This document shows positions 7,738 to 24,888 of a DNA stretch of 44,168 bases, piece by piece; position 1 is the stretch's first letter; each line of letters begins with the position of its first letter. The notes beneath the pieces were generated by a model. The model saw only the letters and a program-made list of their open reading frames with translations, searched no databases and had not been told where the DNA came from. The position numbers and the translations under genes are program-made. Origin of the DNA: Verrucomicrobiales bacterium (lineage in GTDB: Bacteria; Verrucomicrobiota; Verrucomicrobiia; Verrucomicrobiales; DEV007); NCBI GenBank assembly GCA_024641425.1, contig JAHEDC010000003.1:1-44168 (forward strand), written 5' to 3'.

Positions 7738-9456
7738 GTGCGTACACCTTCCAGGATCAGAAACTACCGCCATGTGCTCCTCATATCCCTGTGGAGTGCC
7801 TTCGCCGTGTGGCCTGACAGGTCCGCCACTGCGACGGGCGAGGTATCGGCGGACGAGCAGCGTCTCAGGGATCTTTTCCTTCAGGTTCGCGAAGAGAACC
7901 GCCGCGAGGGCCTTACCCAACCGCTGCCGGCGGCAACCCCTGCCACTCCTCAGAAACCGCGCCCCCAGGAAACCACCGCGCCGAAGCCCCCGTCGCAAAC
8001 CACGCCCGGGAGCCCGGCCAAACCCCGCACTCCTCCGCAGCCTGTCGACAGGGAACCAAGCCATTCCGGTCACAGCAGTCCTTCCCCACCAGCCGCACCC
8101 CCAGCGCCGTCCAAGGCGAAGCGCGGGGTCGCAGCCGCGCCACTCCCGAAACCGGCACCACGCACCAGGCCGGAACCACCACAGCCCGCACCTTCGCGTG
8201 AGACGGACTCGACCGAAGGCCTCGGGCAGAAAGTCCGAGATCTCGCCAGCAACCTGCACGAGCGGCTCTCGTCCCTTCCCCGCACGCCACAAAGCCACGC
8301 CATGGAAACGGCGGATTCCGCGCCTCCCGTTCCCGGCCCTGAATCGGAGCTCGTTCCCATCACCCGGTCAAAACCGAAAGCCATTCCGACGACTCTCGCA
8401 AGGAAGCCGGACGAGAATCGCCCGACTCCCGTGCCGAAGATCGCGCCCGAGAATCCCGTCAAACCCGGGTCTCCGGCTCCAGCCCTCGATTCGACGGAAT
8501 CCTCCCCCGCGAAACTCATGACGAAGGTTGGCCGGACGGTTCCCGAGGTCGACACCGACTCCTTGCTCGGCGAGAAGAGCATTGACCTGAAAATCGACGA
8601 ACCAGCCCGCCGGGAAAGCCTCGCCGCCACCGCCGAGTCGATCCGTCGTTCCCTCCTCGAAGACGACAAGACCGGGACCAAAACCGTCGCGACCGCGAAG
8701 GCCAAGCCAGCCGCACCCTCGAGCGGTCCGATCCCTGTCCCCGTGGCGCCGAAAACCAGCGCCGCAAGAGAGGGACGGCCGTTTGCCGGGGGAATGACCG
8801 GCGCGGTTTTCGAGCGCTTCGTCCACCAGGCGATGACCCTCGGCACGACCGCCGTAATTGCCACGAAACCCGGGCACCCCACCCTTGTGGAACCCGAACT
8901 GAGTCCCGCTCCCGAAGCGGCCGAATCCCTTGAGGCACCGACACCCCAGGATCCCGAGGATGACGTGCCCGCCTATGTGAGGGCCGCCCGAAAGTTCGCC
9001 GAACCTATCGAGAACTTTCCCGCCCTCCCGGAGAACAACCAACCGCCCGGTCTCAACGACTTCGTGATCAGCGCGACCCACCAGACCGATTTCGATATGA
9101 AGTCGTCCTCCATCACCTTCGCCGGGCACGTGATGGTCGAGTCCTCCCGCTTCCACCTCACCTGCGACAAATTCGTTGTTCACATGCTCCCCGAACAGAA
9201 AGGGATGGAATACGGCGAAGCCCTCGGGAACGTCGTGATCCGCATGATGGAGAATCACGAGCCAACCGGCCATACCGGTCTCGCACGCAGGGCCGTCTAC
9301 CGGCCGGACGACGGCGAGATCGTTCTCAGCGGTTGGCCGCGCATCGTGGAGGAGACCAAGGAGCTGGTCGGCATCACCGCCGACGCGCAGATGATCCTCA
9401 CCACGTCCGGGAGCGTCCGAACGATCGGCCGGAACCGCACCATCCTGAAGCAATAA
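7738..9456 (+). CDS. Proline-rich exported protein with C-terminal LptA/OstA-like domain
   Basis: A 572-residue protein from a GTG start. A basic N-terminus and hydrophobic segment (about residues 12-22) look like a signal peptide. Residues about 50-420 are low-complexity and rich in Pro, Ala, Lys and Thr, probably unstructured. The last about 140 residues resemble the OstA/LptA fold that shuttles lipopolysaccharide across the periplasm: FVISATHQTDFDMKSSSITF, AGHVMVESSRFHLTCDKFVV, then EALGNVVIRM, AVYRPDDGEIVLSGWPRI and MILTTSGSVRTIGRNRTILK, matching the LptA pattern of removing, tracking and reporting on beta-strand repeats. LptA itself is only about 180 residues, so the long tether is unusual. 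Start choice is uncertain (a second in-frame GTG lies at 7771). Domain assignment is by pattern and moderately confident. Confidence 0.78.
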   Translation: MRTPSRIRNYRHVLLISLWSAFAVWPDRSATATGEVSADEQRLRDLFLQVREENRREGLTQPLPAATPATPQKPRPQETTAPKPPSQTTPGSPAKPRTPPQPVDREPSHSGHSSPSPPAAPPAPSKAKRGVAAAPLPKPAPRTRPEPPQPAPSRETDSTEGLGQKVRDLASNLHERLSSLPRTPQSHAMETADSAPPVPGPESELVPITRSKPKAIPTTLARKPDENRPTPVPKIAPENPVKPGSPAPALDSTESSPAKLMTKVGRTVPEVDTDSLLGEKSIDLKIDEPARRESLAATAESIRRSLLEDDKTGTKTVATAKAKPAAPSSGPIPVPVAPKTSAAREGRPFAGGMTGAVFERFVHQAMTLGTTAVIATKPGHPTLVEPELSPAPEAAESLEAPTPQDPEDDVPAYVRAARKFAEPIENFPALPENNQPPGLNDFVISATHQTDFDMKSSSITFAGHVMVESSRFHLTCDKFVVHMLPEQKGMEYGEALGNVVIRMMENHEPTGHTGLARRAVYRPDDGEIVLSGWPRIVEETKELVGITADAQMILTTSGSVRTIGRNRTILKQ

Positions 9457-9509
9457 CGCGTGAATTATTCTGGCGCGGCGGTCGCGGCTTCCCTATGATG
9501 AATGCCATC

Positions 9510-9917
9510 ATGAGTGAACCCGCCGATGCGCAGGAATTCGACGTCATCGTCCATCCCCTGGACGACGGAAGCTACTGGGCGGAAGTCGACGGCCTCCCTG
9601 GCTGCCTCACCCAGGCGACCAGTTACACCGACATCCTCACGCGCGTCCGCGACGCGCACGACGCCTGCCTCTTGGTTTTGACCCCGGCGCTCACTGCCGA
9701 GGGAGGCGGCCTCAAGGCGGCCTCGCTGAAGGACCTCCACACCGCCGGTGCCCTCGCCGGCGCCCTGCTCGCCGCCGGCTGGCAAATCGCCGCCCAGGGT
9801 CGTTACCACATCGTCTTTACGACGCTCGGTCGTGACGAGCGCATTTCCGTCCCCACTGACCCGGAAACCATTCTCAACGACGGCTACCTCGGAGGTATCA
9901 GGAGACTCTTCGAATAG
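9510..9917 (+). CDS. Single-chain HicB-HicA-like protein
   Basis: A 135-residue protein from the ATG at 9510; in-frame ATGs at 9495 and 9498 are alternatives. Residues about 9-56 match the HicB antitoxin fold (FDVIVHPLDDGSYWAEVDGL then PGCLTQATSYTDILTRV). After a linker, residues about 74-135 follow the HicA toxin (double-stranded-RNA-binding-like) pattern: a helix with LLAAGW, a GRYHIVF strand, a further strand with ISVP, and GYLGGIRRLF. HicA toxins carry the catalytic His in a GSHH motif; here the aligned site reads GRYH, so the catalytic His appears replaced by Tyr99, though His100 follows. HicB usually ends in a DNA-binding domain, which is absent. No separate hicA is adjacent. Likely not an active toxin; perhaps a domesticated or self-contained RNA-binding protein. 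HicB part is firm, HicA part is my inference. Confidence 0.8.
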   Translation: MSEPADAQEFDVIVHPLDDGSYWAEVDGLPGCLTQATSYTDILTRVRDAHDACLLVLTPALTAEGGGLKAASLKDLHTAGALAGALLAAGWQIAAQGRYHIVFTTLGRDERISVPTDPETILNDGYLGGIRRLFE

Positions 9918-10088
9918 CGTTTGAAGCGATCGACGGGAACCTTTCCCCTTGCGTCCGCCGCCCCCTCGATCTAATCTTAGGCTTCCCTTGGGGGGGAATA
10001 TCAGTCTCACGTCCTTTCAGCCTCTTGGCTTTTCGGGCGTGGGGCTGTGTCTTTTACGGGGCAAACGAGGCACCCGCCGGGCCAGGCC

Positions 10089-10799
10089 TCAACTTTCCTC
10101 TTCGCCGTCCTGAAGCGCCCGCACCAGGCGCTTCACCCGCTGGGGCCTCGGGATGTTCTCGAAGGCCACATCCACCGCATCCCCGACCGAGGAGAATTCA
10201 ACGGTTCCGACGCCCAGGAATCCACGCAAGCCGGCCCGGCGCACGTTGATCGCCCGCACGTCCCGGATCAACACCTCGTTCGAGCTCTTTACCACGAGCC
10301 CCCAGATCACCTCGACCCGTCGCGGCGTAACCACGTATTGCCGCGTCCCGCGGTCCACGAGAATGAAGCACACCGCCCCGACCGCGAGGGCCGAACCGAT
10401 GATGAAATACCAGAGGCTCTGCGGACCAAGGAGATAGCCGCCCACCCCACACCCGACCGCGGCAAGGAGCGAAAACGGGTAGTTCAGCATCGACGGATGC
10501 CCGGAGTAGAGAAGCCGGCCTGGCGGCGGGGGCAAATCCTTTGCATCGTCCTCGAAGTCATCTTCGCCCTCACTCTCACTGCCCTCCCCCTCGTCTTCCC
10601 AATCCTCATCTTGGTCGTCCTCTTCCTCACCCGGCACCACCTCGAAGATCTCGCTCAATCGCCGCCGCCTCGCGCTTCCCACAGGCTGGCAGAAATCGTC
10701 GAAGTCCAATTCCTCCGACTCGAGCATTTCCCGAACCTCCGCCACTTCGTAGGGCCCCTCCCGCTTCCCTCCAACGTAGATGTAAAGCTGCCGTCCCAT
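10089..10799 (-). CDS. GYF_2 domain / bacterial PH (bPH2) membrane protein
   Basis: A 236-residue protein. Residues about 4-53 form a GYF_2 (DUF4339) domain (YIYVGGKREGPYEVAEVREM), a peptide-binding module common in Planctomycetota and Verrucomicrobiota. A very acidic linker (about 55-88, mostly Glu and Asp) follows, then two transmembrane helices (about 105-125 and 130-150) and a bacterial pleckstrin-like YdbS/bPH2 domain (RQYVVTPRRVEVIWGLV, EVLIRDVRAINVRRAGLRGF, VGTVEFSSVGDAVDVAFENI). Likely an inner-membrane adaptor; partner unknown. It lies 25 bases downstream of the YbjN-like gene on the same strand and probably shares its transcript. The about 170-base gap to the HicBA-like gene, which converges on it, shows no convincing terminator. 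Confidence 0.88.
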   Translation of the reverse strand: MGRQLYIYVGGKREGPYEVAEVREMLESEELDFDDFCQPVGSARRRRLSEIFEVVPGEEEDDQDEDWEDEGEGSESEGEDDFEDDAKDLPPPPGRLLYSGHPSMLNYPFSLLAAVGCGVGGYLLGPQSLWYFIIGSALAVGAVCFILVDRGTRQYVVTPRRVEVIWGLVVKSSNEVLIRDVRAINVRRAGLRGFLGVGTVEFSSVGDAVDVAFENIPRPQRVKRLVRALQDGEEES

Positions 10800-13452: not shown

Positions 13453-14235
13453 TCATAATGCGTCTTCCATCTCATCGTCAGGGCGCTCAGGACGCCACAA
13501 TTTGATGCAGATTCTTTGGTCATCGATGTGAAAGAACGCAGGATAATCGGTGGGATCACAAGCACGGATGCTATCGTATAACTCCCGCAGGGATTTGCTT
13601 GCGTCGATTTCGGAATCAGCTGGCTTGCGTCTGGCAGGATACTCGGTCGCCAGCGATTCGTCCTGGGCCTGCGGCGTAAAATCCGGACGATCCAGAAGTT
13701 CGAGCGCACGCAGCACCAGATCCGGCTCAGCCGCGTAGACTTTTCGCTGCATCGAGCGGGTTGTGTCATAGCGTGTCAGTGCCACACGGCTTTGCGCGAC
13801 TATTGCACCCGTATCCATTCCCGCATCCATAAGATGAACGGTTGAGCCGGTTTCCTTTTCGTTGTTAATGATGATAAACGCGCCACTCGTTGGTCCACGA
13901 TAGCGCGGCAGCAAGGTCGGATGAACGTTCAAGCACATCCGGAACCGTTCCAGTATCTCACTTGCTACAATATACGGGAAGCCGACCGATAACAAGACAC
14001 CGCCTGCCAACGGGTGCAAAACCTCGGCAAGCGACGCCTTCCGGCATGCTGCCACCTCGAGTCCCGCTGCCTTGATGCGCTCGATGCTTGCAGTCAAGTT
14101 TGGGGATTCCGGCTGCGGGACCACGACTTTTGCGATCTGGTAGCCGTCCTCCACCAATCGAAGTACGATGTTCTCGCGCCCCCATGAGCCGAACAGAACA
14201 ATCAACGGGTGTCTCTTGAGTGACATGCTACTCAT
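13453..14235 (-). CDS. Formyltransferase-family protein (Fmt/ArnA/VioF type)
   Basis: A 260-residue protein of the N10-formyltetrahydrofolate-dependent formyltransferase fold. Visible are the opening strand LIVLFGSWGRENIVLRLVED, the catalytic region MCLNVHPTLLPRYRGPTSGA with the Asn and His of the active site, and TGSTVHLMDAGMDTGAIVAQ with the catalytic Asp. The C-terminal domain (KSLRELYDSIRACDPTDYPA, CIKLWRPERP) resembles that of ArnA and Fmt. In a sugar cluster directly after an aminotransferase, N-formylation of an amino sugar is the likeliest role, as in VioF or FdtF-type enzymes, rather than initiator-tRNA formylation. The start at 14235 avoids overlap with the FemAB gene; 14226 is an alternative. 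Last gene of the minus-strand three-gene cassette. Confidence 0.85.
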   Translation of the reverse strand: MSSMSLKRHPLIVLFGSWGRENIVLRLVEDGYQIAKVVVPQPESPNLTASIERIKAAGLEVAACRKASLAEVLHPLAGGVLLSVGFPYIVASEILERFRMCLNVHPTLLPRYRGPTSGAFIIINNEKETGSTVHLMDAGMDTGAIVAQSRVALTRYDTTRSMQRKVYAAEPDLVLRALELLDRPDFTPQAQDESLATEYPARRKPADSEIDASKSLRELYDSIRACDPTDYPAFFHIDDQRICIKLWRPERPDDEMEDAL

Positions 14236-14248
14236 TTTTAAGTAAGAT

Positions 14249-15280
14249 TCATGCGGGCGCTTCCAACGCGGAAAACGGAAGAACGAAAAAATACGGGAAT
14301 TCCGCAAGTAAGGTCTCCCTGCTGAGATGCTTCAATTTCTCGCTCCTCAGGATCGTATAATAGAAATACTCAAGATCCGTCGTCCCCCATCGCTTCTTGA
14401 AATCATACACTCCCTTCTGTGCCGGTGCCGTCCCGCCCCAGTTCCAAAAACGGAATCCGGCGTCAAGCGCGTCTTTCATCGCTTCATAGACAATCAGACT
14501 CATCGGTTGATGGTCACGATAGCGCTCGACCGTCACAGGAACGAAATACTCCGCTGTTCGATTGAAGTAAAAACTAAGCAGTGCGGCGATCGGGCCATCG
14601 CCGCACTCGGCAACATAGATCCGAAAGTCCGATCCGTAGTCAAATTTCGATTGGACGAGCTCGAAGAAGGATTTCGGCTTAGGCGAAACGCCTATCTTTT
14701 CCATATTCTCCCGATGCGTCTCGCACAAGAAATCGAGAAAGCCCAGACCACCTTCCCACGAGACCCTAACTTTCATCTTCGCTGCCTTCCTCACCATATT
14801 CCGCGTCTTCGAGTGAAACACATTCATCAACTGGTCGGATGTTTCGGGAAAGCGGGTGACTTGCCCGATTCTCATTTCCTTGAAGCGATGGTCCGATTCC
14901 TCGTAAAGCTCGATGTCGGACTCAAACGGTGCTGTAATGAGTGTGCCCGCAACCGCGTTTTTTTCTTCCAGCATCTCTCTGTACCGCCCGAGTAAGAGTC
15001 TCTTTGTCTCAGGATCCGAGGCAATGGCTCCGCCATTGCTACCGTAAAACGGCAACGAGTTGAATACGGCTCCATGGCGCGCGTGCTCCTTCACGAATAG
15101 CGGTAACACTCCCTTCATCTCACCGGCTTCCGAAGCAAGGAGATAGCAATCTCGGGCACCGAGAAAATCGCGCAGGAAATTCCGATACTTGAGGGAGGCG
15201 AAAAGCGAAGCGGTCTCGAAGCGCAAAATGAAGGCGTGATAGGCCTCCTCGAGGCTTTTGTCCAGCGTCTCAATCTTCAT
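14249..15280 (-). CDS. FemAB-like / BioF2-type acyltransferase
   Basis: A 343-residue protein of the GNAT-like FemAB/BioF2 superfamily: N-terminal SLFASLKYRNFLRDFLGARD and CYLLASEAGEMKGVLPLFVK, central SKTRNMVRKAAKMKVRVSWE and C-terminal IYVAECGDGPIAALLSFYFN, FRFWNWGGTAPAQKGVYDFK and KRWGTTDLEYFYY. The FWNWGG...GVYDFKKRWG pattern is typical of FemAB-like proteins in polysaccharide and exosortase-type loci, which N-acylate sugars or peptides with amino acids or acyl groups. The ATG at 15280 is chosen because AGGAG lies 8 bases upstream; the TTG at 15286 would place it too close. It overlaps the DegT gene by 11 bases, so translation is coupled. Substrate unknown. Confidence 0.85.
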   Translation of the reverse strand: MKIETLDKSLEEAYHAFILRFETASLFASLKYRNFLRDFLGARDCYLLASEAGEMKGVLPLFVKEHARHGAVFNSLPFYGSNGGAIASDPETKRLLLGRYREMLEEKNAVAGTLITAPFESDIELYEESDHRFKEMRIGQVTRFPETSDQLMNVFHSKTRNMVRKAAKMKVRVSWEGGLGFLDFLCETHRENMEKIGVSPKPKSFFELVQSKFDYGSDFRIYVAECGDGPIAALLSFYFNRTAEYFVPVTVERYRDHQPMSLIVYEAMKDALDAGFRFWNWGGTAPAQKGVYDFKKRWGTTDLEYFYYTILRSEKLKHLSRETLLAEFPYFFVLPFSALEAPA

Positions 15281-16295
15281 TGCCAATTCTCCTAATCGCG
15301 TTAACGACGGCTCTCATCTCCCCATCGGTCAAGGCCGGGTAGATCGGAATACAAACCGTCGATGCGAATAGCCGCTCGGCGACGGGATATCCAGTCTTTC
15401 CACATCCGTATCTTTGATGAAGAAGTTCATCGACTCCCTTTCTGATTGCAATGCCTGAATTCTCCGCCTCCCTCCGGGCGGCCTCGAATCCCTTTTGCAT
15501 TCGCAAGGGAAAACGAAAATACATGGAAGCGGACACCGCGCGTAACTGCCGGGTTAGCGATTCGGGCAGGTTCTCGAAATAGTACTGCGCGATCTCAAGC
15601 CTGCGCTCGAGCATCTGAGGATAGATTTCCAGCTGGCTCAGTCCTAGAGCGGCTTGCCCTTCCGTGAAGGGAAGAAAGACCGCATGTTTGGCATGGGCTT
15701 TTGCCAATCTGTCCCGATATTTCTCCCCGAAGCATGCCACCGCGCCCCCTTCTCCGGCCGTCAGGCACTTCGTCGCGTGAAACGAATAGAAAGCGATATC
15801 GCATTCCGCACCTGGGCGGTTCCCTTCGATCTCACTCGTGAGGCACTGGCAGCAGTCTTCGATGACGGGAACGCCGAATCCCTTGAACAGAGACGCGGGA
15901 GCCAGAATCCCATAGATGTGTACCACGATGATCGCACGCGTCCTTTCGGTAAATACGGCGGCGACCGATTCCCTTGTCATCACCCAACTTTCGCCGATAT
16001 CGCAGAAAACAGGTGTGGCACCCAGGAACAGGATCGTGTCGGCAACGGCGTGACACACATAGGTCGGCAGAATGACCTCATCCCCGAATCCGATGTCCAA
16101 GGCCGAAAGCGCCACGAGCAATGCGGCCGCACCATTGGGAGTCAAGAAGACCGACTCTGCATGGAGATAGTCCTTCAAGCACTGAGAGAACTTCAGGGTC
16201 ACCGTGCCATTTGCCAGCGATCCGCTCCCGATCTGTTCGGCGACGCGCTGCACTGAAGCCTGATTAATAAGCGGTTTCGAGTGCGGAATCTGCAT
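15270..16295 (-). CDS. DegT/DnrJ/EryC1/StrS family sugar aminotransferase
   Basis: A 341-residue pyridoxal-phosphate aminotransferase. The family signature is clear: SVFLTPNGAAALLVALSALD, FGDEVILPTYVCHAVADTIL, LFLGATPVFCDIG, PVIEDCCQCLTSE and the PLP-lysine motif SFHATKCLTAGEGGAVACFG (Lys at about residue 176). Such enzymes transfer an amino group to a nucleotide-linked ketosugar. The start at 16295 (QIPHSKPLI) fits the family's usual opening; a GTG at 16316 is an alternative. The length is slightly short for the family (about 360-400). It is the first gene of the cassette with the FemAB and formyltransferase genes, suggesting an amino sugar that is then acylated. Base composition downstream is lower in GC than in the flanks. 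Confidence 0.93.
   Translation of the reverse strand: MQIPHSKPLINQASVQRVAEQIGSGSLANGTVTLKFSQCLKDYLHAESVFLTPNGAAALLVALSALDIGFGDEVILPTYVCHAVADTILFLGATPVFCDIGESWVMTRESVAAVFTERTRAIIVVHIYGILAPASLFKGFGVPVIEDCCQCLTSEIEGNRPGAECDIAFYSFHATKCLTAGEGGAVACFGEKYRDRLAKAHAKHAVFLPFTEGQAALGLSQLEIYPQMLERRLEIAQYYFENLPESLTRQLRAVSASMYFRFPLRMQKGFEAARREAENSGIAIRKGVDELLHQRYGCGKTGYPVAERLFASTVCIPIYPALTDGEMRAVVNAIRRIGNED
15289..15293 (-). promoter_or_regulatory. Shine-Dalgarno AGGAG of the FemAB-like gene
   Basis: On the minus strand AGGAG lies 8 bases before the ATG at 15280, inside the upstream DegT gene. It decides the start between that ATG and a TTG at 15286. It stands out because most genes in this window lack a recognisable Shine-Dalgarno. 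Confidence 0.6.
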
Positions 16296-16425
16296 GGCAA
16301 GGGATAGTGCGTTCACGATGTTCCCAAGCGCACGCCCTTGACGGCCGGTTTGGTTACGGGAAATGAGGGGGGGTGCGGTTCGAAAGGGGGCGTTGAACCA
16401 TGGAGCGGTCCATTGGCGAAGACAA

Positions 16426-17385
16426 TTATTTCTGGGAGATCATCCATTCCGCCGTCCTGCGGATGCCTTCCTCAAGGTCGATCTTGGCTTTGAAGCCGAG
16501 GAGTTTCTGGGTCTTGTCGACGCTCGGGATGCGGAGCGCGATGTCGGCGGAGAGCGGCGGTTCGAAGACGATCTCGGACTGCGAGTTGAGGACGCGGCAG
16601 ACGGTCTCGGCCAACCCGAGGATCGTGATGACGGCGCGGGCGTTGCCGATGTTGAAAGACTCGCCAATGGCGGCGGGATTCGTCAGGCAGCGCAGGATAC
16701 AATCGACGAAATCATCGACGTAGCACCATGCGCGGATTTGATTTCCGTCGCCATGGATGCGAATTGTTTCGCCGGCCATCGCCTTGCGAATAAAGATCTG
16801 TATCGCGCCCTCACCCGTCTGGCCAGGGCCGTAGATATTGAAGGGACGGACGGTGACGACGGGGAGCCCGTCGCGGGTGTGGTAGGCCTTGGCGAGGTGT
16901 TCACCGGCGAGTTTGCTCACGGCGTAGACCCACCGTGCCTCGCCCGCCGAACCCGCGACGGTGGCGTCGTCCTCGGCGGAACGGAACGCCATGGAGCCGA
17001 AGACCTCGGAGGTGGAGAACTCGATGAGCCGGTCCGGAATGCCGTGTTTGCTGGCGGCGGCGAGGACGTTGGCGGTGCCGATCATGTTCACCTCCATCGT
17101 GCGGACAGGATCGCGGATAACCGTATCGATTCCGGCGATGCCAGCCGCGTGGATGACGCTGGTCGCTCCGGCCATGGCCTCGTAGACGGCGGCGGCGTCG
17201 AGGACGTCGCCCTTGACGATACGGATGGACGGATGTCCGGCGAGCGCGCTGCCGCTCAGGGTGTCGCGGTGGAAGTTATCGAAAACGACGATGTTGTTGT
17301 CCTCGACGAGGTGACGCATGAGCGTGTTCGCGATGAAGCCGGCGCCGCCGGTGATGAAGTAGGTTTTTCTCGGTGAATCAGACAC
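16426..17385 (-). CDS. NAD-dependent epimerase/dehydratase (extended SDR)
   Basis: A 319-residue nucleotide-sugar enzyme of the extended short-chain dehydrogenase family. It has the glycine-rich NAD site TGGAGFI (12-18), [10 protein letters not shown], the catalytic stretch EFSTSEVFG (122-130) and the YxxxK pair YAVSK (Y154, K158), then [10 protein letters not shown]. The STSEV motif, with Ser where dTDP-glucose 4,6-dehydratases (RmlB) have Asp, argues for an epimerase, decarboxylase or related activity over RmlB. The GTG start at 17385 overlaps the end of the upstream DegT gene by 8 bases, so the two are translationally coupled and probably act on the same UDP- or dTDP-sugar. Exact substrate unknown. 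Confidence 0.9.
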
Positions 17386-18508
17386 GGAGGGCAGCGTGGA
17401 GGGTTTCGGCCACCCTGTCGATCTCGGAATCGGTCAATCCGGCGAAAAGGGGCAGGGCGAGACTGAGGTCTTCGGCAAGGAAGGCGCGGGGTGTCTCCTG
17501 GGCGGAAGCGGCGTAGCATCCCAGCCGCGCCGGGGCGTGGGTGCCGGGCCGGGTGCCGATGCGGGCGGCGGTGAGGGCGGCCATCACGGAGTTGCGCCGG
17601 GCGTGGGCGTCGGGAAGCCCGGGATCGATGAGGCAGACGAAGCTCTGGTAGCTGTGCCGGTCCGCATCGGCGGGCGGGAGGAGGCCCGGGCAATCGGCGA
17701 GGAGTTCGCGATAGCGGGCGGCGCAGGCTCGGCGGGCGGCGATCATTTCCTCAAGGCGACCGAGTTGGCCGAGGGCGAGCGCCGCCTGGATGTCGCTCAG
17801 GCGATAGTTGAAGCCGACATTGGGAAAGGGCGCCATCTCGTGCGCGGCACCGGTGGCGGATGGGGAGACACCGGCCCCGTGGTTGCGCAGCGAGTCGAGC
17901 GTGTCCGCGAGGGAGCTGTCGTTGGTGACAAGCATGCCGCCCTCGCCGGTCGTGATCGATTTCCGGGGATGGAAGCTGAAACAGGCGAGGTGCGAACCTT
18001 CCCCGATCCGGCGGCCGTTCCGCTCGGTGCCGAGCGCGCAGGCGGCGTCCTCAACGATCCAGAGCCCGTGCCGTGCGGCAAGAACCGCCACGGCGTCCAT
18101 ATCCGCCGCAAGCCCGAAAAGGTGGACCGGTACGATACCGACGGTGCGCGGTGTGACGAGCGATTCGGCGTGCGCGGGATCGAGGTTGAAGGTCGCGAGG
18201 TCGATGTCGCAGAAGACGGCCTTGCCGCCGCAGAGTTCGACCGCGTTCGCGGTGGCGATCCAGGTCAGGCCGGGCACGATGACCTCGTCGCCCGGGCCGA
18301 CGCCCCAGGCCTTCATCGCAAGGTGCAGCGCGGCGGTGCAGGAGGAAACGGCGAGGGCGCGCTCCGCCCCGGTGTATTCCGCGAGCGCTTTCTCGAAAGC
18401 GGCGACCTGGGGGCCCTGCGTGACCCAGCCGGAGCGGAGCACCGCCACGACGGCATTGATCTCGGATTCGGTAAACTGGACCTTGGCAAGCGGAATGGGA
18501 GCGTTCAC
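17378..18508 (-). CDS. DegT/DnrJ/EryC1/StrS family sugar aminotransferase
   Basis: A 376-residue PLP-dependent aminotransferase of normal family length. Signatures are [100 protein letters not shown] and [20 protein letters not shown] with the PLP lysine K183. The family makes amino sugars such as perosamine, Ara4N or bacillosamine precursors. It starts with GTG, 92 bases from the divergent AsnB gene, and precedes the overlapping SDR gene, so the two form a two-gene operon that could make a 4-amino sugar. It is distinct in sequence from the DegT genes at 15270 and 23794, so three different amino-transfer steps are encoded nearby. Confidence 0.95.
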
Positions 18509-18600
18509 GGCGCATCGTTACGCGAGGTCCCCCGTCCATGCAAACAGCCCCGGGCGTGATAAGGGTTGCCCGGCTTCCTTTCCCATGCACACTCTCGGGC

Positions 18601-20802
18601 ATGTGCGGCATCGCAGGATTCTGGAGCAGGAAAGGCACTCCCGCGAGTGCCGCCGACCTCACGCCCGCGCTCGACCGCCTCCGCCATCGCGGTCCCGACG
18701 ATGAAGGCTACCTCGTGGCCGACACCACGAGCGGTCGCGCGACCGCCCTCGCCGGGCCCGAAACCGCCGAAGGTGTCGATTTGCCGCCTTTCGAAAGGGA
18801 TCCGGCGGTGACCGGCGATGTCGTGCTCGGGCACCGGCGGCTCTCGATCCTCGACCTTTCCCCGCGCGGTCACCAGCCGATGGCGTCTCCGGACGGGCAC
18901 TGCTGGGTCATCTTCAACGGCGAGATCTACAACTACGTCGAACTTCGCGCCGAGCTGGCGGCGGACGGCGAGGCCTTCGCGACGGAGACCGATACCGAGG
19001 TCATCCTGCGGGCGTGGCAGAAATGGGGCCCGGAGTGCCTGCACCGCTTCAACGGGGACTGGGCGCTGGCCCTGCTCGACCTGCGCGCCGAGCCGATGCT
19101 CTTTCTCGCGCGCGACCGCTGGGGGGTGAAGCCGCTCTACTTCGCGGAATCCGACGTCGGGCTCTGGTTCGCCTCGGAGGCCAAGGCCCTGATCGGAACC
19201 GCCGTGCCCTTCCTCCCGGCGCGACGGGCGGTGGCCCGCTTCCTCCAGTCGGGCGAACTCCCCCCCGCCGACCAGGGTGCGACCTTCTTCGAAGGCCTCC
19301 GCGAGCTTGCCCCCGGCGAATGTCTGCGCATCACGCCCAAGGGATCCGAACGTGGCCGCTGGTACGACCTGCGGACGGCCTCGCAACCGGTCGAGGACTC
19401 CGTTCCCGAAAAAGCGGTGGCGGAAATGGCGGCGCATCTCGAGCGCGCGGTGCGCCTCCGCCTCCGGTCGGACGTGCCATTGGGCAGTTGCCTGAGCGGC
19501 GGGGTCGATTCCTCGGCCGTGGTCGGAACCATGCGCGAGCTTCTCGGACCGGACGTCCCGCTCCACACTTTCAGCGCCGTTTATCGACTTCGAGGGAAAT
19601 TCGACGAGTCAGCCTGGATTGCCCAGGTCGTCGCCCACGCCGCCTGCGAATCCCACGAAACCTACCCGGACGAACTTCCGCTCACGGAGATGTTCGACGA
19701 TCTTGTCTGGCACCAAGACGAGCCGTTCTCCACACCAAGCATTTTCGCCCAATGGTGCGTCATGCGCGAGGCCCGGAACGCGGGCGTGACCGTCCTCCTT
19801 GACGGCCAGGCCGCCGACGAATTGCTCGCCGGATACCAGCCGGAAACCTACCAGGAACACCAGCTCGAACTCCTCGTCTCCGGCCACTACCTCTCCTTCC
19901 TCCGCGCCCTTTTGGCCCGGCGGCGCGCGACCGGAAATGCCCTCTGCGATCTCTGGCGGGAATTGCGGGCGATCCTTGTTTTCGGTGTCGGCGGTCAGCG
20001 GATGGAATTGCTCGACCAGCAGGAGCAGCTTCGCGCGCTCGCCTTCCGCGAGGACGTGGCCGCCGAGTTCTTCGACAAGGCGACCCTCGATGCCGACGCA
20101 CTCGGCAAAAGGCTTGACGAGGACCGGGCCAAGCTCGACGACTGGCGCGGGAAACGTGCCAAGGCCACCTGCGACGCCCAGCGGTCGCTTGATGAACGGA
20201 TCGCAAAAAAAGAGCAGCAGATCGCCTCGACCCTTCTCAAACGGGCGCGACTCACAGGGAGAGGATTCCGAGCCGTAGCCTGGCAGCGGCTGCGCGGTCG
20301 CTTTGCCCACAATCTGCGCGAGTACCTCATCGACCAGACGACGAGCAGCAATCTCGTCCACCTTCTGCGCTACGAGGATCGCAATTCCATGGCCTTTTCC
20401 ATCGAGGCGCGCGTGCCCTTCACCGATGTCGAACTCGTCGAATGGGCATTCCGACGGGGAAACGCGGTCAAGATCCGGCACGGCTGGACGAAGTGGGTTC
20501 TCCGCAAGACGATGGCGGGAAAAGCCCCGGATACCATCGCCTGGCGTCGCGACAAGACCGGCTTCGAGACCCCCGAGCGCGAACTCGCCCAGCGGCTGCT
20601 CGCCGCCCGCACCGACAGGCACCCCGCCGACTCGCCCCTCCTCCGGCAATTCCTCGATCCCGAACGCATGCGCCAGGCCTGCGACCGTGTCCTCAGCGGA
20701 GAGTCAGGGCGCGAGGAGATCCGCGCCGTCTGGCGCTGGCTGGTCCTCGACGCCTGGCACTGCCAGTTCGCGGCGGCCGGCACTCCGAACCCCCGGAAAT
20801 GA
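18601..20802 (+). CDS. asnB: Asparagine synthase (glutamine-hydrolysing) / AsnB-like amidotransferase
   Basis: A 733-residue class II glutamine amidotransferase joined to an ATP-dependent synthetase. The start at 18601 puts the catalytic Cys2 after Met (MCGIAGFW). The glutaminase part has RHRGPDDEGY, GHRRLSILDLSP and FNGEIYNYVELR; the synthetase part has the PP-loop SGGVDSS (299-305), LLDGQAADELLAGYQPE and SMAFSIEARVPFTDVELVEW. The protein is about 100 residues longer than usual; an extra charged helical stretch (about 490-565, KRLDEDRAKLDDWRGKRAKA and ERIAKKEQQIAS) looks like a coiled coil. It begins a plus-strand run leading into the wbpA-type gene 57 bases later. AsnB-like enzymes in O-antigen loci (for example WbpS) amidate uronic acids, so that role is likelier here than cellular asparagine supply. 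Confidence 0.93.
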   Translation: MCGIAGFWSRKGTPASAADLTPALDRLRHRGPDDEGYLVADTTSGRATALAGPETAEGVDLPPFERDPAVTGDVVLGHRRLSILDLSPRGHQPMASPDGHCWVIFNGEIYNYVELRAELAADGEAFATETDTEVILRAWQKWGPECLHRFNGDWALALLDLRAEPMLFLARDRWGVKPLYFAESDVGLWFASEAKALIGTAVPFLPARRAVARFLQSGELPPADQGATFFEGLRELAPGECLRITPKGSERGRWYDLRTASQPVEDSVPEKAVAEMAAHLERAVRLRLRSDVPLGSCLSGGVDSSAVVGTMRELLGPDVPLHTFSAVYRLRGKFDESAWIAQVVAHAACESHETYPDELPLTEMFDDLVWHQDEPFSTPSIFAQWCVMREARNAGVTVLLDGQAADELLAGYQPETYQEHQLELLVSGHYLSFLRALLARRRATGNALCDLWRELRAILVFGVGGQRMELLDQQEQLRALAFREDVAAEFFDKATLDADALGKRLDEDRAKLDDWRGKRAKATCDAQRSLDERIAKKEQQIASTLLKRARLTGRGFRAVAWQRLRGRFAHNLREYLIDQTTSSNLVHLLRYEDRNSMAFSIEARVPFTDVELVEWAFRRGNAVKIRHGWTKWVLRKTMAGKAPDTIAWRRDKTGFETPERELAQRLLAARTDRHPADSPLLRQFLDPERMRQACDRVLSGESGREEIRAVWRWLVLDAWHCQFAAAGTPNPRK

Positions 20803-20859
20803 AGGCTTGCCTTTGAGAATGCGGTCGCCGACTATCCCCGCCCCAAAAGGAAACGTCCC

Positions 20860-22185
20860 ATGCAGGATACCCAGAGCATTACCAGAATTCGCGAGAAGCA
20901 GGCTGTCGTCGGTGTCATTGGGCTCGGCTACGTCGGCCTGCCCCTCGTCCTCGCTTACGCGGCGAAAGGCATCCACGTCATCGGATTCGACGTCGATGAG
21001 ACCAAAATCGCCCTGCTCCTGAAGGGCGCGAGCTACATCGACCACATCCCGGCGGCGAAGATCGCCGAGGCCGTTGAGGCGAAGCTCCTCACGGCGACAA
21101 GCGACTTCGCCCGCATTTCCCAGGTGGATGCGATCATCATCTGCGTGCCGACGCCGCTGGGCGAGCACCATGAGCCGGACCTCGGATACGTATGCCGCAC
21201 GATCGAGGCCGTGGCACCGCACCTCCGTGCCGGCCAGATTGTCAGTCTCGAAAGCACGACCTATCCCGGCACGACGGAGGAGATCCTCCAGCCCCGCATC
21301 GAGGAGCGAGGGCTGGTGGTCGGAGAGGACGTCTTTCTCGTCTACTCGCCGGAGCGCGAGGATCCGGGCAATCCGGAATTCGCCAGCGTGGATATTCCGA
21401 AGATTGTCGGCGGCGTTACCGAGGCCTGTCTCGCGCACGGCAAGGCACTCTACGGCGCGGTCTTCAAGTCCATCGTGCCGGTCGCGAGCACGCGGGTGGC
21501 GGAGTTCACCAAGCTCCTCGAGAACATCTACCGCTCGGTCAACATCGGCCTCGTCAATGAACTGAAAATGGCCGCCGACCGGATGGGCATCGACATTTGG
21601 GCCGTCATCGCGGCGGCCTCGACGAAACCCTTCGGGTTCACGCCGTTCTATCCCGGCCCCGGTCTCGGCGGCCACTGCATTCCCATCGATCCTTTCTACC
21701 TAACCTGGAAGGCCCGCGAATTCGGTATCCACACCCGCTTCATCGAGCTGGCCGGCGAGATCAACGAGGCGATGCCCCAATACGTCGTCCATCGCGTTAC
21801 CGAACGTCTGAACGAGAGCGCGAAGGCAGTCAAGGGCAGCCGGATTCTCATCATGGGCCTCGCCTACAAGAGCGATGTCGACGACATGCGGGAGTCGGCC
21901 ACCTTTAAGCTCATGGACGAGTTCCGCCGTCTCGGGGCCCTGATTTCCTACCACGATCCCCACATTCCGGTCATCCCGCCCACCCGCGAGCATGCCGACT
22001 GGGCGGGCCTCGAATCGATCCCGTGGAAGGAGCAGAATATCCGCTCCTTCGATTGCATTGTCATCGCCACCAACCACGCAGCCTACCGCCTGGATCAATT
22101 GCTCGAATGGTCCGACTGCATCGTGGACACCCGCAATGCGATCCCCAACCGCGCCACCCATGGAGGCAAGGTGACCACCGCGTAG
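20860..22185 (+). CDS. wbpA: UDP-N-acetyl-D-glucosamine 6-dehydrogenase (WbpA type)
   Basis: A 441-residue nucleotide-sugar dehydrogenase. It oxidises C6 of UDP-GlcNAc to the uronic acid using two NAD+. Visible are the Rossmann motif GVIGLGYVGLPLVLAYA (18-34), VPTPLGEHHEPDLGYV, SPEREDPGNPEF, the region TKLLENIYRSVNIGLVNELK and the catalytic cysteine motif GLGGHCIPIDPF (Cys273). SPEREDPGN is characteristic of WbpA-like enzymes. Length is normal. AAGGA precedes the ATG by about 9 bases, one of the few Shine-Dalgarno-like sites in the window. The genes that follow (wbpB, wbpD, wbpE) support the substrate assignment; a UDP-glucose dehydrogenase is unlikely. Confidence 0.93.
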   Translation: MQDTQSITRIREKQAVVGVIGLGYVGLPLVLAYAAKGIHVIGFDVDETKIALLLKGASYIDHIPAAKIAEAVEAKLLTATSDFARISQVDAIIICVPTPLGEHHEPDLGYVCRTIEAVAPHLRAGQIVSLESTTYPGTTEEILQPRIEERGLVVGEDVFLVYSPEREDPGNPEFASVDIPKIVGGVTEACLAHGKALYGAVFKSIVPVASTRVAEFTKLLENIYRSVNIGLVNELKMAADRMGIDIWAVIAAASTKPFGFTPFYPGPGLGGHCIPIDPFYLTWKAREFGIHTRFIELAGEINEAMPQYVVHRVTERLNESAKAVKGSRILIMGLAYKSDVDDMRESATFKLMDEFRRLGALISYHDPHIPVIPPTREHADWAGLESIPWKEQNIRSFDCIVIATNHAAYRLDQLLEWSDCIVDTRNAIPNRATHGGKVTTA

Positions 22186-22201
22186 TCGCCCCCCACGAAG
22201 C

Positions 22202-23140
22202 ATGAATATCGCAATCATCGGCGCCGGCAACTGGGGCATCAATATCGTCCGCAATCTCCATGAGCTCGGAGTGCTCGCAGCCGTGGCGGATCAGGAAGAG
22301 AGCTTGCGCCGGCGCGCCGAGGAGACTTGTCCCGGGCTCGCCACCTTCGCCGATTACCGCGAATTGCTCGAAGCCGACCTCGACGCGGTGGTTGTCGCCA
22401 CGCCGGCCCAGACCCACCATGAGATCGCGAAAGCCTTCCTCGAACATGGAAAGGATGTGCTTGTCGAGAAACCGATGACTCTCACCACCTACGACGCCGG
22501 AGACCTCGTCGCGACCGCGGACCACACCGGGCAGTTGCTCATGGTCGGTCATTTGTTGCTCTATGATCCGGCCATCCGCTGGCTGGCCGAATATCTTCGA
22601 CGCGGCGAGATGGGCAAGGTTTACAGCCTGCACCAGGAGCGGACCAAACTGGGTCGCGCCCGTCCGGTCGAGAATGTGCTCTGGAGCCTCGGCGTCCATG
22701 ACGTGGCGGTCCTGCTCCACCTCGCCGACGAGGTGCCCTGCGACGTCCGGGTCACCAGCCACGCCTGCCTGCGAACGACCGTCGAGGATGATGCCTACCT
22801 GCATCTCGACTTCCCGAGCGGCCTCAAGGGACACTTGCACAGTTCGTGGCTCTGGCCCGAGGATCGGCGCAGCCTGACCGTCATCGCGGAGAAAGGCATG
22901 CTCATTCTGGACGAGAAAACGAGAAAGGTAACCCGCTACCACAAGACCATCGACGCGGAATTGCGCAATTGTGACGGCGGTTCGGAAGTCGTTTTCGAGG
23001 ACAGGGGCGAAGTCCTGCGCCTGGAGCTGGAACACTTCATCGAGTGCGTCCGCACCCGCGCGACACCGATTTCCGACGGGCGGAACGGCCAGGAAGTCGT
23101 GCGCATCCTTGAGGAAGCCTGCCGGGCCGGAAACCGATGA
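22202..23140 (+). CDS. wbpB: Gfo/Idh/MocA oxidoreductase (WbpB type)
   Basis: A 312-residue NAD(P)-dependent oxidoreductase with N-terminal Rossmann motif NIAIIGAGNWGINIVRNLHE, DAVVVATPAQTHHEIAKAFL and the catalytic region EKPMTLTTYDAGD, and a C-terminal domain with LGVHDVAVLLHLADEVPCDV and LKGHLHSSWLWPEDRRSLTV. In the wbp pathway WbpB oxidises the C3 hydroxyl of UDP-GlcNAc uronate to the 3-keto form, regenerating NAD+ using 2-oxoglutarate as acceptor. It is 17 bases after wbpA and overlaps wbpD by 4 bases (ATGA). Assignment to WbpB is by context plus family; the sequence alone gives the family. Confidence 0.88.
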   Translation: MNIAIIGAGNWGINIVRNLHELGVLAAVADQEESLRRRAEETCPGLATFADYRELLEADLDAVVVATPAQTHHEIAKAFLEHGKDVLVEKPMTLTTYDAGDLVATADHTGQLLMVGHLLLYDPAIRWLAEYLRRGEMGKVYSLHQERTKLGRARPVENVLWSLGVHDVAVLLHLADEVPCDVRVTSHACLRTTVEDDAYLHLDFPSGLKGHLHSSWLWPEDRRSLTVIAEKGMLILDEKTRKVTRYHKTIDAELRNCDGGSEVVFEDRGEVLRLELEHFIECVRTRATPISDGRNGQEVVRILEEACRAGNR

Positions 23141-23787
23141 GCGACTACTTCCAGCATGAAACGGCCGTCATCGACGAGGGAGCGCAAATCGGCGCCGGCA
23201 CGAAGATCTGGCACTTCGCGCACATCTGCGCGGGCGCGGTCATCGGCGAGCGCTGTATCTTCGGCCAGAATACGATGGTCGCGCCCGGTGTCACCATCGG
23301 GAACAACGTGAAGGCGCAGAACAACGTCGCGATCTACACCGGAACAACGATTGAGGACGACGTTTTCCTCGGCCCGTCCTGCGTCCTCACCAACGTCACC
23401 AACCCGCGCTCCCAAATCAACCGGCGGAACCTCTACGAACCGACCCGCATTCGGCGCGGCGCGACGATTGGGGCGAACGCCACCCTCGTCTGCGGCATCA
23501 CCCTCGGGCGCTATGCCTTCATCGCCGCCGGGGCGGTCGTGACAAAGGACGTGCCTGATTACGGCCTCGTCACCGGCGTCCCGAGCCGCCACCAGGGCTG
23601 GATGAGCCGTCACGGGCACCTGTTGGGGAAGGCGGACGACGCCGGCGATTTCATCTGCCCGGAAAGCGGCTTCCGCTACCGCCTGAACGAAGAAGGGGCC
23701 CTACGCTGCCTCGACCTCGATGAGGACGCGCCGCTTCCGCCCGACCTCTCGGAAGGCCGGAAATCCTACGACGATTTCAAATCCTAG
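23137..23787 (+). CDS. wbpD: UDP-amino-sugar N-acetyltransferase, left-handed beta-helix (WbpD type)
   Basis: A 216-residue acyltransferase with hexapeptide repeats forming a left-handed parallel beta-helix: ETAVIDEGAQIGAGTKIWHF, CAGAVIGERCIFGQNTMVAP, GVTIGNNVKAQNNVAIYTGT and ANATLVCGITLGRYAFIAAG. WbpD acetylates the 3-amino group made by WbpE, using acetyl-CoA. The C-terminus has about 50 extra residues after the helix, with CPESGFRYRLNEEGALRC, a tail found in WbpD-like proteins. Its start overlaps the wbpB stop as ATGA, and it ends 6 bases before wbpE, so the four genes form one transcript. Confidence is high for the fold and good for the reaction. Confidence 0.9.
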   Translation: MSDYFQHETAVIDEGAQIGAGTKIWHFAHICAGAVIGERCIFGQNTMVAPGVTIGNNVKAQNNVAIYTGTTIEDDVFLGPSCVLTNVTNPRSQINRRNLYEPTRIRRGATIGANATLVCGITLGRYAFIAAGAVVTKDVPDYGLVTGVPSRHQGWMSRHGHLLGKADDAGDFICPESGFRYRLNEEGALRCLDLDEDAPLPPDLSEGRKSYDDFKS

Positions 23788-23793
23788 TCCGCC

Positions 23794-24888
23794 ATGGAAT
23801 TCATCGACCTCAAATCCCAGCAAGCCCTCATCCGGGAAACCCTCGACAAGCGCATCGCCGCCGTGCTCGACCACGGGAAATTCATCCTCGGTCCCGAAGT
23901 CCGCGAACTGGAGGAACGCCTCCAGGAATACGTCGGGGTGAAACATTGCATCGGCGCCTCCAGCGGCACCGACACGCTGCTCATCGCGATGATGGCCCTC
24001 GGCATCGGCCCCGGCGACGAAGTCATCACCGTGCCCTACACCTGGATCTCCACCGCCGAGATGATCGCCCTCCTCGGCGCGACACCGGTTTTCGTCGACA
24101 TCGATCCGCTGACCTGGAACCTGGACGCCTCGCTTCTGGAAGCCGCCCTCACGGAAAAAACGAAGGCCATCATGCCGGTCGGAATCTACGGCCAGACGGC
24201 GGACATGACCGCGATCAATGAAATCGCGGCCCGGAATGGCAATCTTCCCGTCCTCGAGGACGCGGCCCAGTCGTTCGGCGCCACCCACCACGGGAAGAAA
24301 TCGTGCGCCCTCTCCGGCATCGGCAGCACCTCGTTCTTTCCGTCGAAACCACTCGGCGGATACGGTGACGGCGGTGCCCTCTTCACCGATGACGACGATC
24401 TCGCCGAGCGCATGCGCTGGATCGGCGTGCATGGTCAGGCGAAAAAGCACTACCACCCCATCCTCGGGTTGAACGGTCGCCTCGACACCCTTCAGGCCGC
24501 CGTCGTGCTCGCCAAGCTCGAACTATTCGACGCCGAAGTCATCCAGCGGCAGAAGGTCGCCGAGACCTACGCCAGCCAACTCGGGGAAACCGAGGCCACC
24601 CTTCCCATGATCGGGCCGGGCAACACCTCCGTCTACGCGCAGTATACCGTCCTTTCCGAAGACCGCGATGCCCTTCAGGCCCGGCTGTCGAAGGCCGCGA
24701 TTCCTTCGGTGAGTTACTACGCGGTGCCGCTGCACCTCCAGCCCGTTTTCGCGAATCTTGGCCACGTCCAAGGCGACTTCCCTGTCACCGAACGCGTGGC
24801 CGACCAGTGCCTCAGCCTGCCCATGAATCCGTATCTGAGCGACGACGAAATTTCCCAGGTCTGCGCCGCGATGCTCGGCGCACGCTGA
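23794..24888 (+). CDS. wbpE: UDP-3-keto-sugar aminotransferase (WbpE type, DegT family)
   Basis: A 364-residue PLP-dependent aminotransferase of the DegT family. Signatures are MEFIDLKSQQALIRETLDKR, GPEVRELEERLQEYVGVKHC, ASSGTDTLLIAMMALGIGPG, LPVLEDAAQSFGATHHGKKS and the PLP-lysine motif SFFPSKPLGGYGDGGALFTD (Lys185). The FFPSKPLG form is usual in WbpE-like enzymes. In the pathway it aminates C3 of the 3-keto uronate using glutamate, before acetylation by WbpD. It ends tail-to-tail with the minus-strand glycosyltransferase gene; the two stop codons form the palindrome TGATCA with no space between. Confidence 0.92.
   Translation: MEFIDLKSQQALIRETLDKRIAAVLDHGKFILGPEVRELEERLQEYVGVKHCIGASSGTDTLLIAMMALGIGPGDEVITVPYTWISTAEMIALLGATPVFVDIDPLTWNLDASLLEAALTEKTKAIMPVGIYGQTADMTAINEIAARNGNLPVLEDAAQSFGATHHGKKSCALSGIGSTSFFPSKPLGGYGDGGALFTDDDDLAERMRWIGVHGQAKKHYHPILGLNGRLDTLQAAVVLAKLELFDAEVIQRQKVAETYASQLGETEATLPMIGPGNTSVYAQYTVLSEDRDALQARLSKAAIPSVSYYAVPLHLQPVFANLGHVQGDFPVTERVADQCLSLPMNPYLSDDEISQVCAAMLGAR

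What the first reader, a model, noticed from the sequence alone, without database searches (positions are those of the whole stretch)
9510..9917. One polypeptide holding HicB antitoxin and HicA-toxin-like halves with a replaced catalytic His
HicB and HicA are normally separate genes; HicB carries its own DNA-binding domain. Here a HicB-like N-terminus runs into a domain with the HicA pattern, and the aligned GSHH position reads GRYH. A self-inhibited or domesticated RNA-binding protein would be the simplest reading. I am not aware of it being described, but I could not search.
Basis: partly seen in the sequence, partly recalled or inferred. Interest (0 to 1): 0.6.

Follow-up and report, generated by a model that had tools for sequence, protein, structure and literature searches.

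The report
Fused HicBA toxin-antitoxin protein, probably tamed
A single small bacterial protein joins an antitoxin (HicB) to its toxin partner (HicA); this arrangement was already catalogued in 2024, the supposedly lost catalytic histidine is in fact present, but this small family has lost other toxin features and may no longer be poisonous.

Summary
The fusion is real. Window 9510-9917 (+) encodes a short, DNA-binding-domain-free HicB half followed by a HicA half. Profile, profile-profile and structure comparisons agree, and three intact full-length relatives exist in other genera of the same taxonomic family. No separate hicA lies beside them. The "replaced catalytic His" is an alignment slip of one residue. 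Canonical HicA has His 9 residues after the GW Trp and 3 before a core aromatic; H105 occupies that position in the window protein, and the His is invariant in all four fusions. What the fusions have lost is the essential Gly two residues before it, the His of the PxH loop, and most of the strong positive charge. [quoted passage not shown] Best reading: a lineage-restricted Class 12 fused HicBA whose toxin half is masked in cis by HicB and probably attenuated or non-toxic, maintained under purifying selection. Whether it still cuts RNA or was repurposed is open. New member of a known kind; modest interest.

The parts
9510..9917 (+). fused hicBA gene (start ATG 9510 by comparison with relatives; in-frame ATGs also at 9495 and 9498)
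   Evidence: full-length relatives
9534..9671 (+). HicB half (UPF0150/short HicB type, no DNA-binding domain), residues 14-59 of P0001, strands 17-21, 27-31, 38-41 and helix 44-59
9672..9743 (+). linker, lowest confidence around residues 64-70
9744..9914 (+). HicA half, helix-strand-strand-strand-helix (residues 84-139)
9807..9809 (+). codon of H105, equivalent of the catalytic His (BpsHicA His24); invariant in four fusions
   Evidence: PMC3969222
9801..9803 (+). codon of R103, position of the essential Gly (BpsHicA Gly22), lost in all four fusions (R/E/V/A)
   Evidence: PMC3969222

Best explanation
This is a Class 12-type fused HicBA protein: a short HicB without a DNA-binding domain joined by a linker of roughly 15-25 residues to a HicA (dsRBD-like) domain. 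The HicB half is expected to sit over the HicA active-site face in cis, as separate HicB does in HicAB complexes. The HicA half keeps its fold and the catalytic-position His but has lost the essential Gly, the PxH-loop His and much of the basic RNA-binding surface. The most likely state is therefore a permanently neutralised, attenuated or non-toxic toxin kept for a regulatory or RNA/partner-binding role. Shown: the fusion, its homology, the predicted fold, the His, the losses, and constraint on both halves in one pair of relatives. Inferred: cis masking, absence of toxicity, and the cellular role.
For: Fusion and homology. Fold: models with mean pLDDT 84.5 and 85.2 and pTM 0.79 and 0.77, with matches to HicA and HicB of 6g26. 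The pTM of about 0.78 for a two-domain chain is consistent with fixed packing. His retained and Gly lost. In B. pseudomallei HicA, H24A and G22C abolish toxicity while S23A and P41A do not (PMC3969222). Charge: canonical HicA pI 9.6-11.9, net +3 to +10; fused HicA halves pI 5.8-9.7, net -2 to +3. Selection: G013 versus G005 dN/dS is about 0.26 in the HicB half and about 0.22 in the HicA half. HicB masks the catalytic His in solved HicAB complexes (PMC11594946). No defence-model hits for the protein or ten neighbouring genes.
Against: The catalytic-position His is invariant, which is what one expects if activity is still selected. G22C was non-toxic in one HicA only; other backgrounds may tolerate the change. 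Two relatives keep a mildly basic HicA half (pI 9.6-9.7). Interdomain packing was not inspected in coordinates or as a PAE map. Synonymous distances are large, and only one pair is usable.
Confidence: 0.5

Rival explanations
1. An armed fused toxin-antitoxin, CapRel-like: HicB holds an active HicA in cis, and a phage or stress signal releases it to cut RNA and stop growth.
For: The catalytic-position His is invariant in four genera; both halves are constrained. Gerdes 2024 proposes this model for fused HicABs by analogy with CapRel-SJ46 (PMC10865869).
Against: The essential Gly is lost in all members and the positive charge is reduced in all of them. The window gene lies among ordinary chromosomal genes with no defence-model neighbours. 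No match in phage records at E 0.1.
Confidence: 0.27
2. A trans-acting antitoxin or decoy: the fusion neutralises or titrates HicA/HicB of incoming or resident canonical hicBA modules.
For: The HicB half is the better conserved half in most pairs. Two of the four genomes hold a HicA-family gene elsewhere.
Against: No HicA above the Pfam cut-off was found elsewhere in the window's genome (90.6% complete), nor any in G005 (62% complete). A covalently tethered HicA half would occupy HicB in cis.
Confidence: 0.13
3. A decaying hicBA remnant fused by frameshift, with no function.
For: Motif erosion; the HicA half diverges faster than the HicB half in most pairs. A truncated, apparently decaying fusion exists in G492.
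Against: The frame is intact in four genera, with 33 invariant columns and dN/dS of about 0.2-0.3 in the closest pair.
Confidence: 0.1

Closest known systems
Class 12 fused HicBA (Gerdes 2024, mBio, PMC10865869; example MBI3260764.1)
   Same: One gene; a small HicB without DNA-binding domain N-terminal, HicA C-terminal. Near-identical domain coordinates: HicB 12-60 and HicA 74-127 in the example, about 5-55 and 73-129 in the G005 protein.
   Different: The HicA half here has lost the Gly of GSH, the PxH His and most of its basic charge. Whether other Class 12 members share this could not be checked (Table S1 not held).
Class 2 hicBA operon (separate short HicB then HicA)
   Same: Order, sizes and domain types; common in the same order of bacteria, some with an overlapping stop/start (L005: 4-base ATGA overlap).
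   Different: Two genes, canonical GSHH and PxHG motifs, strongly basic HicA.
B. pseudomallei HicAB (6g26)
   Same: Both halves match its two chains by fold.
   Different: Separate chains; [quoted passage not shown] HicA there has intact Gly22.
CapRel-SJ46
   Same: Toxin and antitoxin in one chain.
   Different: Unrelated toxin (tRNA pyrophosphokinase); antitoxin C-terminal; only a functional analogy.

Membership tests
Class 12 fused HicBA | single gene, HicB domain before HicA domain | tested here: met
Class 12 fused HicBA | small HicB without recognisable DNA-binding domain | tested here: met
   no HTH or RHH hit; strand-strand-strand-helix then linker
Class 12 fused HicBA | HicA domain superposes on canonical HicA | tested here: met
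   6g26_F: TM 0.78 by target length, rmsd 1.6 A over 56 columns
HicA toxin family (PF07927) | Pfam gathering score of 27 bits | tested here: inconclusive
   window protein 14-16 bits; G013 fusion 27.5 bits, passes
HicA toxin family (PF07927) | catalytic His at the GW+9 position | tested here: met
   H105, invariant in four fusions
HicA toxin family (PF07927) | Gly two residues before the catalytic His (needed for toxicity in BpsHicA) | tested here: not met
   R/E/V/A in the four fusions
HicA toxin family (PF07927) | RNase activity and toxicity | not testable with these tools
   needs expression
CapRel-like anti-phage fused TA | phage trigger and protection | not testable with these tools
   no defence-model neighbours or phage relatives, indirect only

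The most novel reading that the evidence does not exclude
A small vertically kept family of domesticated HicBA proteins in which a toxin-antitoxin pair became one non-toxic chain with a new cellular role (RNA- or partner-binding regulator). It would trace a path from class 2 operon to fusion to loss of toxicity with the catalytic His kept.
Probability: 0.3. Interest if true: 0.45.

Novelty: new member of a known kind. Interest (0 to 1): 0.27.

Why it matters
In the literature found here, fused HicBA proteins are described only by bioinformatics, and how they are regulated is an open question. This family offers a compact case in which a toxin half kept the active-site His but lost the Gly and charge linked to toxicity. 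That makes it testable whether fused TAs are armed sensors or tamed domesticates. It also corrects the claim that the catalytic residue was replaced.

Tried and rejected
Replaced catalytic His (GSHH = GRYH): rejected, the register is off by one. Assembly frameshift artefact: rejected, intact full-length relatives in three other genera. Antisense frame 9465-10010 as the real gene: not supported, homology is on the + frame only. Plasmid or phage carriage: only weak HicB hits in two plasmids, none in phages. Viral contigs: three partial relatives only; a search with the canonical HicA alignment could not be run. No RNA family near the gene and no promoter or terminator match. Gerdes Table S1, which lists Class 12 members, was not available.

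Full report
What is there. The frame ends at 9917 on the + strand; ATGs lie at 9495, 9498 and 9510, and the last matches the starts of the relatives. Pfam finds HicA (16.4 bits, E 0.0099) and UPF0150 (14.3 bits, E 0.04) in the isolated halves, both below the curated cut-offs. A profile built from ten canonical HicA sequences fetched here scores the window's C-half at 16.2 bits, and none of 2000 shuffles reaches that; the HicB half scores 54 bits against at most 11 for 500 shuffles. Profile-profile comparison of the four fusions with canonical HicA gives 55 aligned columns with P = 9.7e-9. The structure model (pLDDT 84.5, pTM 0.79) has a HicB-like strand-strand-strand-helix and a HicA-like helix-three strands-helix. 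Its closest solved structures are the HicB and HicA chains of B. pseudomallei. A relative modelled separately gives the same topology.

Relatives. Full-length single-frame relatives occur in three other genera of the same family: G010, G013 and G005, 33-42% identical to the window protein. Three overlapping surveys of 384-388 genomes each, at order, class and phylum level, otherwise found separate hicB/hicA pairs, hicB-like frames or frames with stops. One truncated, apparently independent fusion is in G492. G013 and G005 share an upstream glycosyltransferase gene; the window gene sits 53 bases after an LptA-domain gene. Context is therefore not conserved. No canonical hicA lies next to any of the four. 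G010 has a separate hicA and hicB on another contig, and G013 a second hicA-like gene.

The histidine. In canonical HicA of these relatives, His lies 9 residues after the Trp of GW (8 in one subgroup), followed in the main group by a core aromatic at +3. In the window these are W96, H105 and F108. BpsHicA numbering gives the same spacing: Trp15, His24, Phe27 (PMC3969222). hhalign and hmmsearch both align H105 with the catalytic His. The His is invariant in all four fusions. The Gly two residues before it becomes R, E, V or A, and the His of the PxH loop becomes D, L, S or A. Of five columns invariant in the canonical set (G17, G25, H27, H44, G52 of A2), two are kept everywhere (the Gly of GW and the catalytic His), one is kept in three of four (G52), and two are lost throughout. 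Fused HicA halves are far less basic than canonical HicA.

Function. H24A and G22C each abolished BpsHicA toxicity, so loss of the Gly and of RNA-binding charge suggests attenuated or absent toxicity; retention of the His cautions against certainty. Both halves appear under purifying selection in the G013-G005 pair (dN/dS about 0.26 and 0.22), so the protein is not simply debris. In solved complexes HicB masks the catalytic His (PMC11594946); a covalent HicB would do so permanently in cis unless released. I commit to a cis-masked, probably attenuated fused HicBA with a domesticated role (0.5), with an armed CapRel-like sensor as main rival (0.27).

Known. Gerdes 2024 defined Class 12 as a monocistronic hicBA encoding HicA fused to a small HicB, noted similarity to Class 2, and argued that some members are under selection and might be phage sensors. 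The present protein meets that definition. The novelty is limited to the eroded toxin features of this lineage.

Noticed in passing
L087 2639-2971 (G492:C1): A second, apparently independent HicB-HicA single frame in the same phylum. It keeps the canonical GSHHIY motif but is cut short soon after.
   Followed up: partly
window 13453-24888: Cluster of sugar and surface-polysaccharide genes: two DegT aminotransferases, UDP-sugar dehydrogenase, GFO/IDH oxidoreductase, hexapeptide transferase, asparagine synthase, FemAB-like acetyltransferase and a formyltransferase.
   Followed up: no
window 7738-9456: 572-residue protein with an LptA/LptD_N domain after a long Pro-rich N-terminal region, just upstream of the fusion.
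   Followed up: no
window 10089-10799 (-): Protein combining a weak GYF_2 match with a bacterial PH domain.
   Followed up: no
L005 1495-1901: Canonical hicB and hicA overlapping by four bases (ATGA) in the same taxonomic family, a plausible ancestor layout for the fusion.
   Followed up: partly
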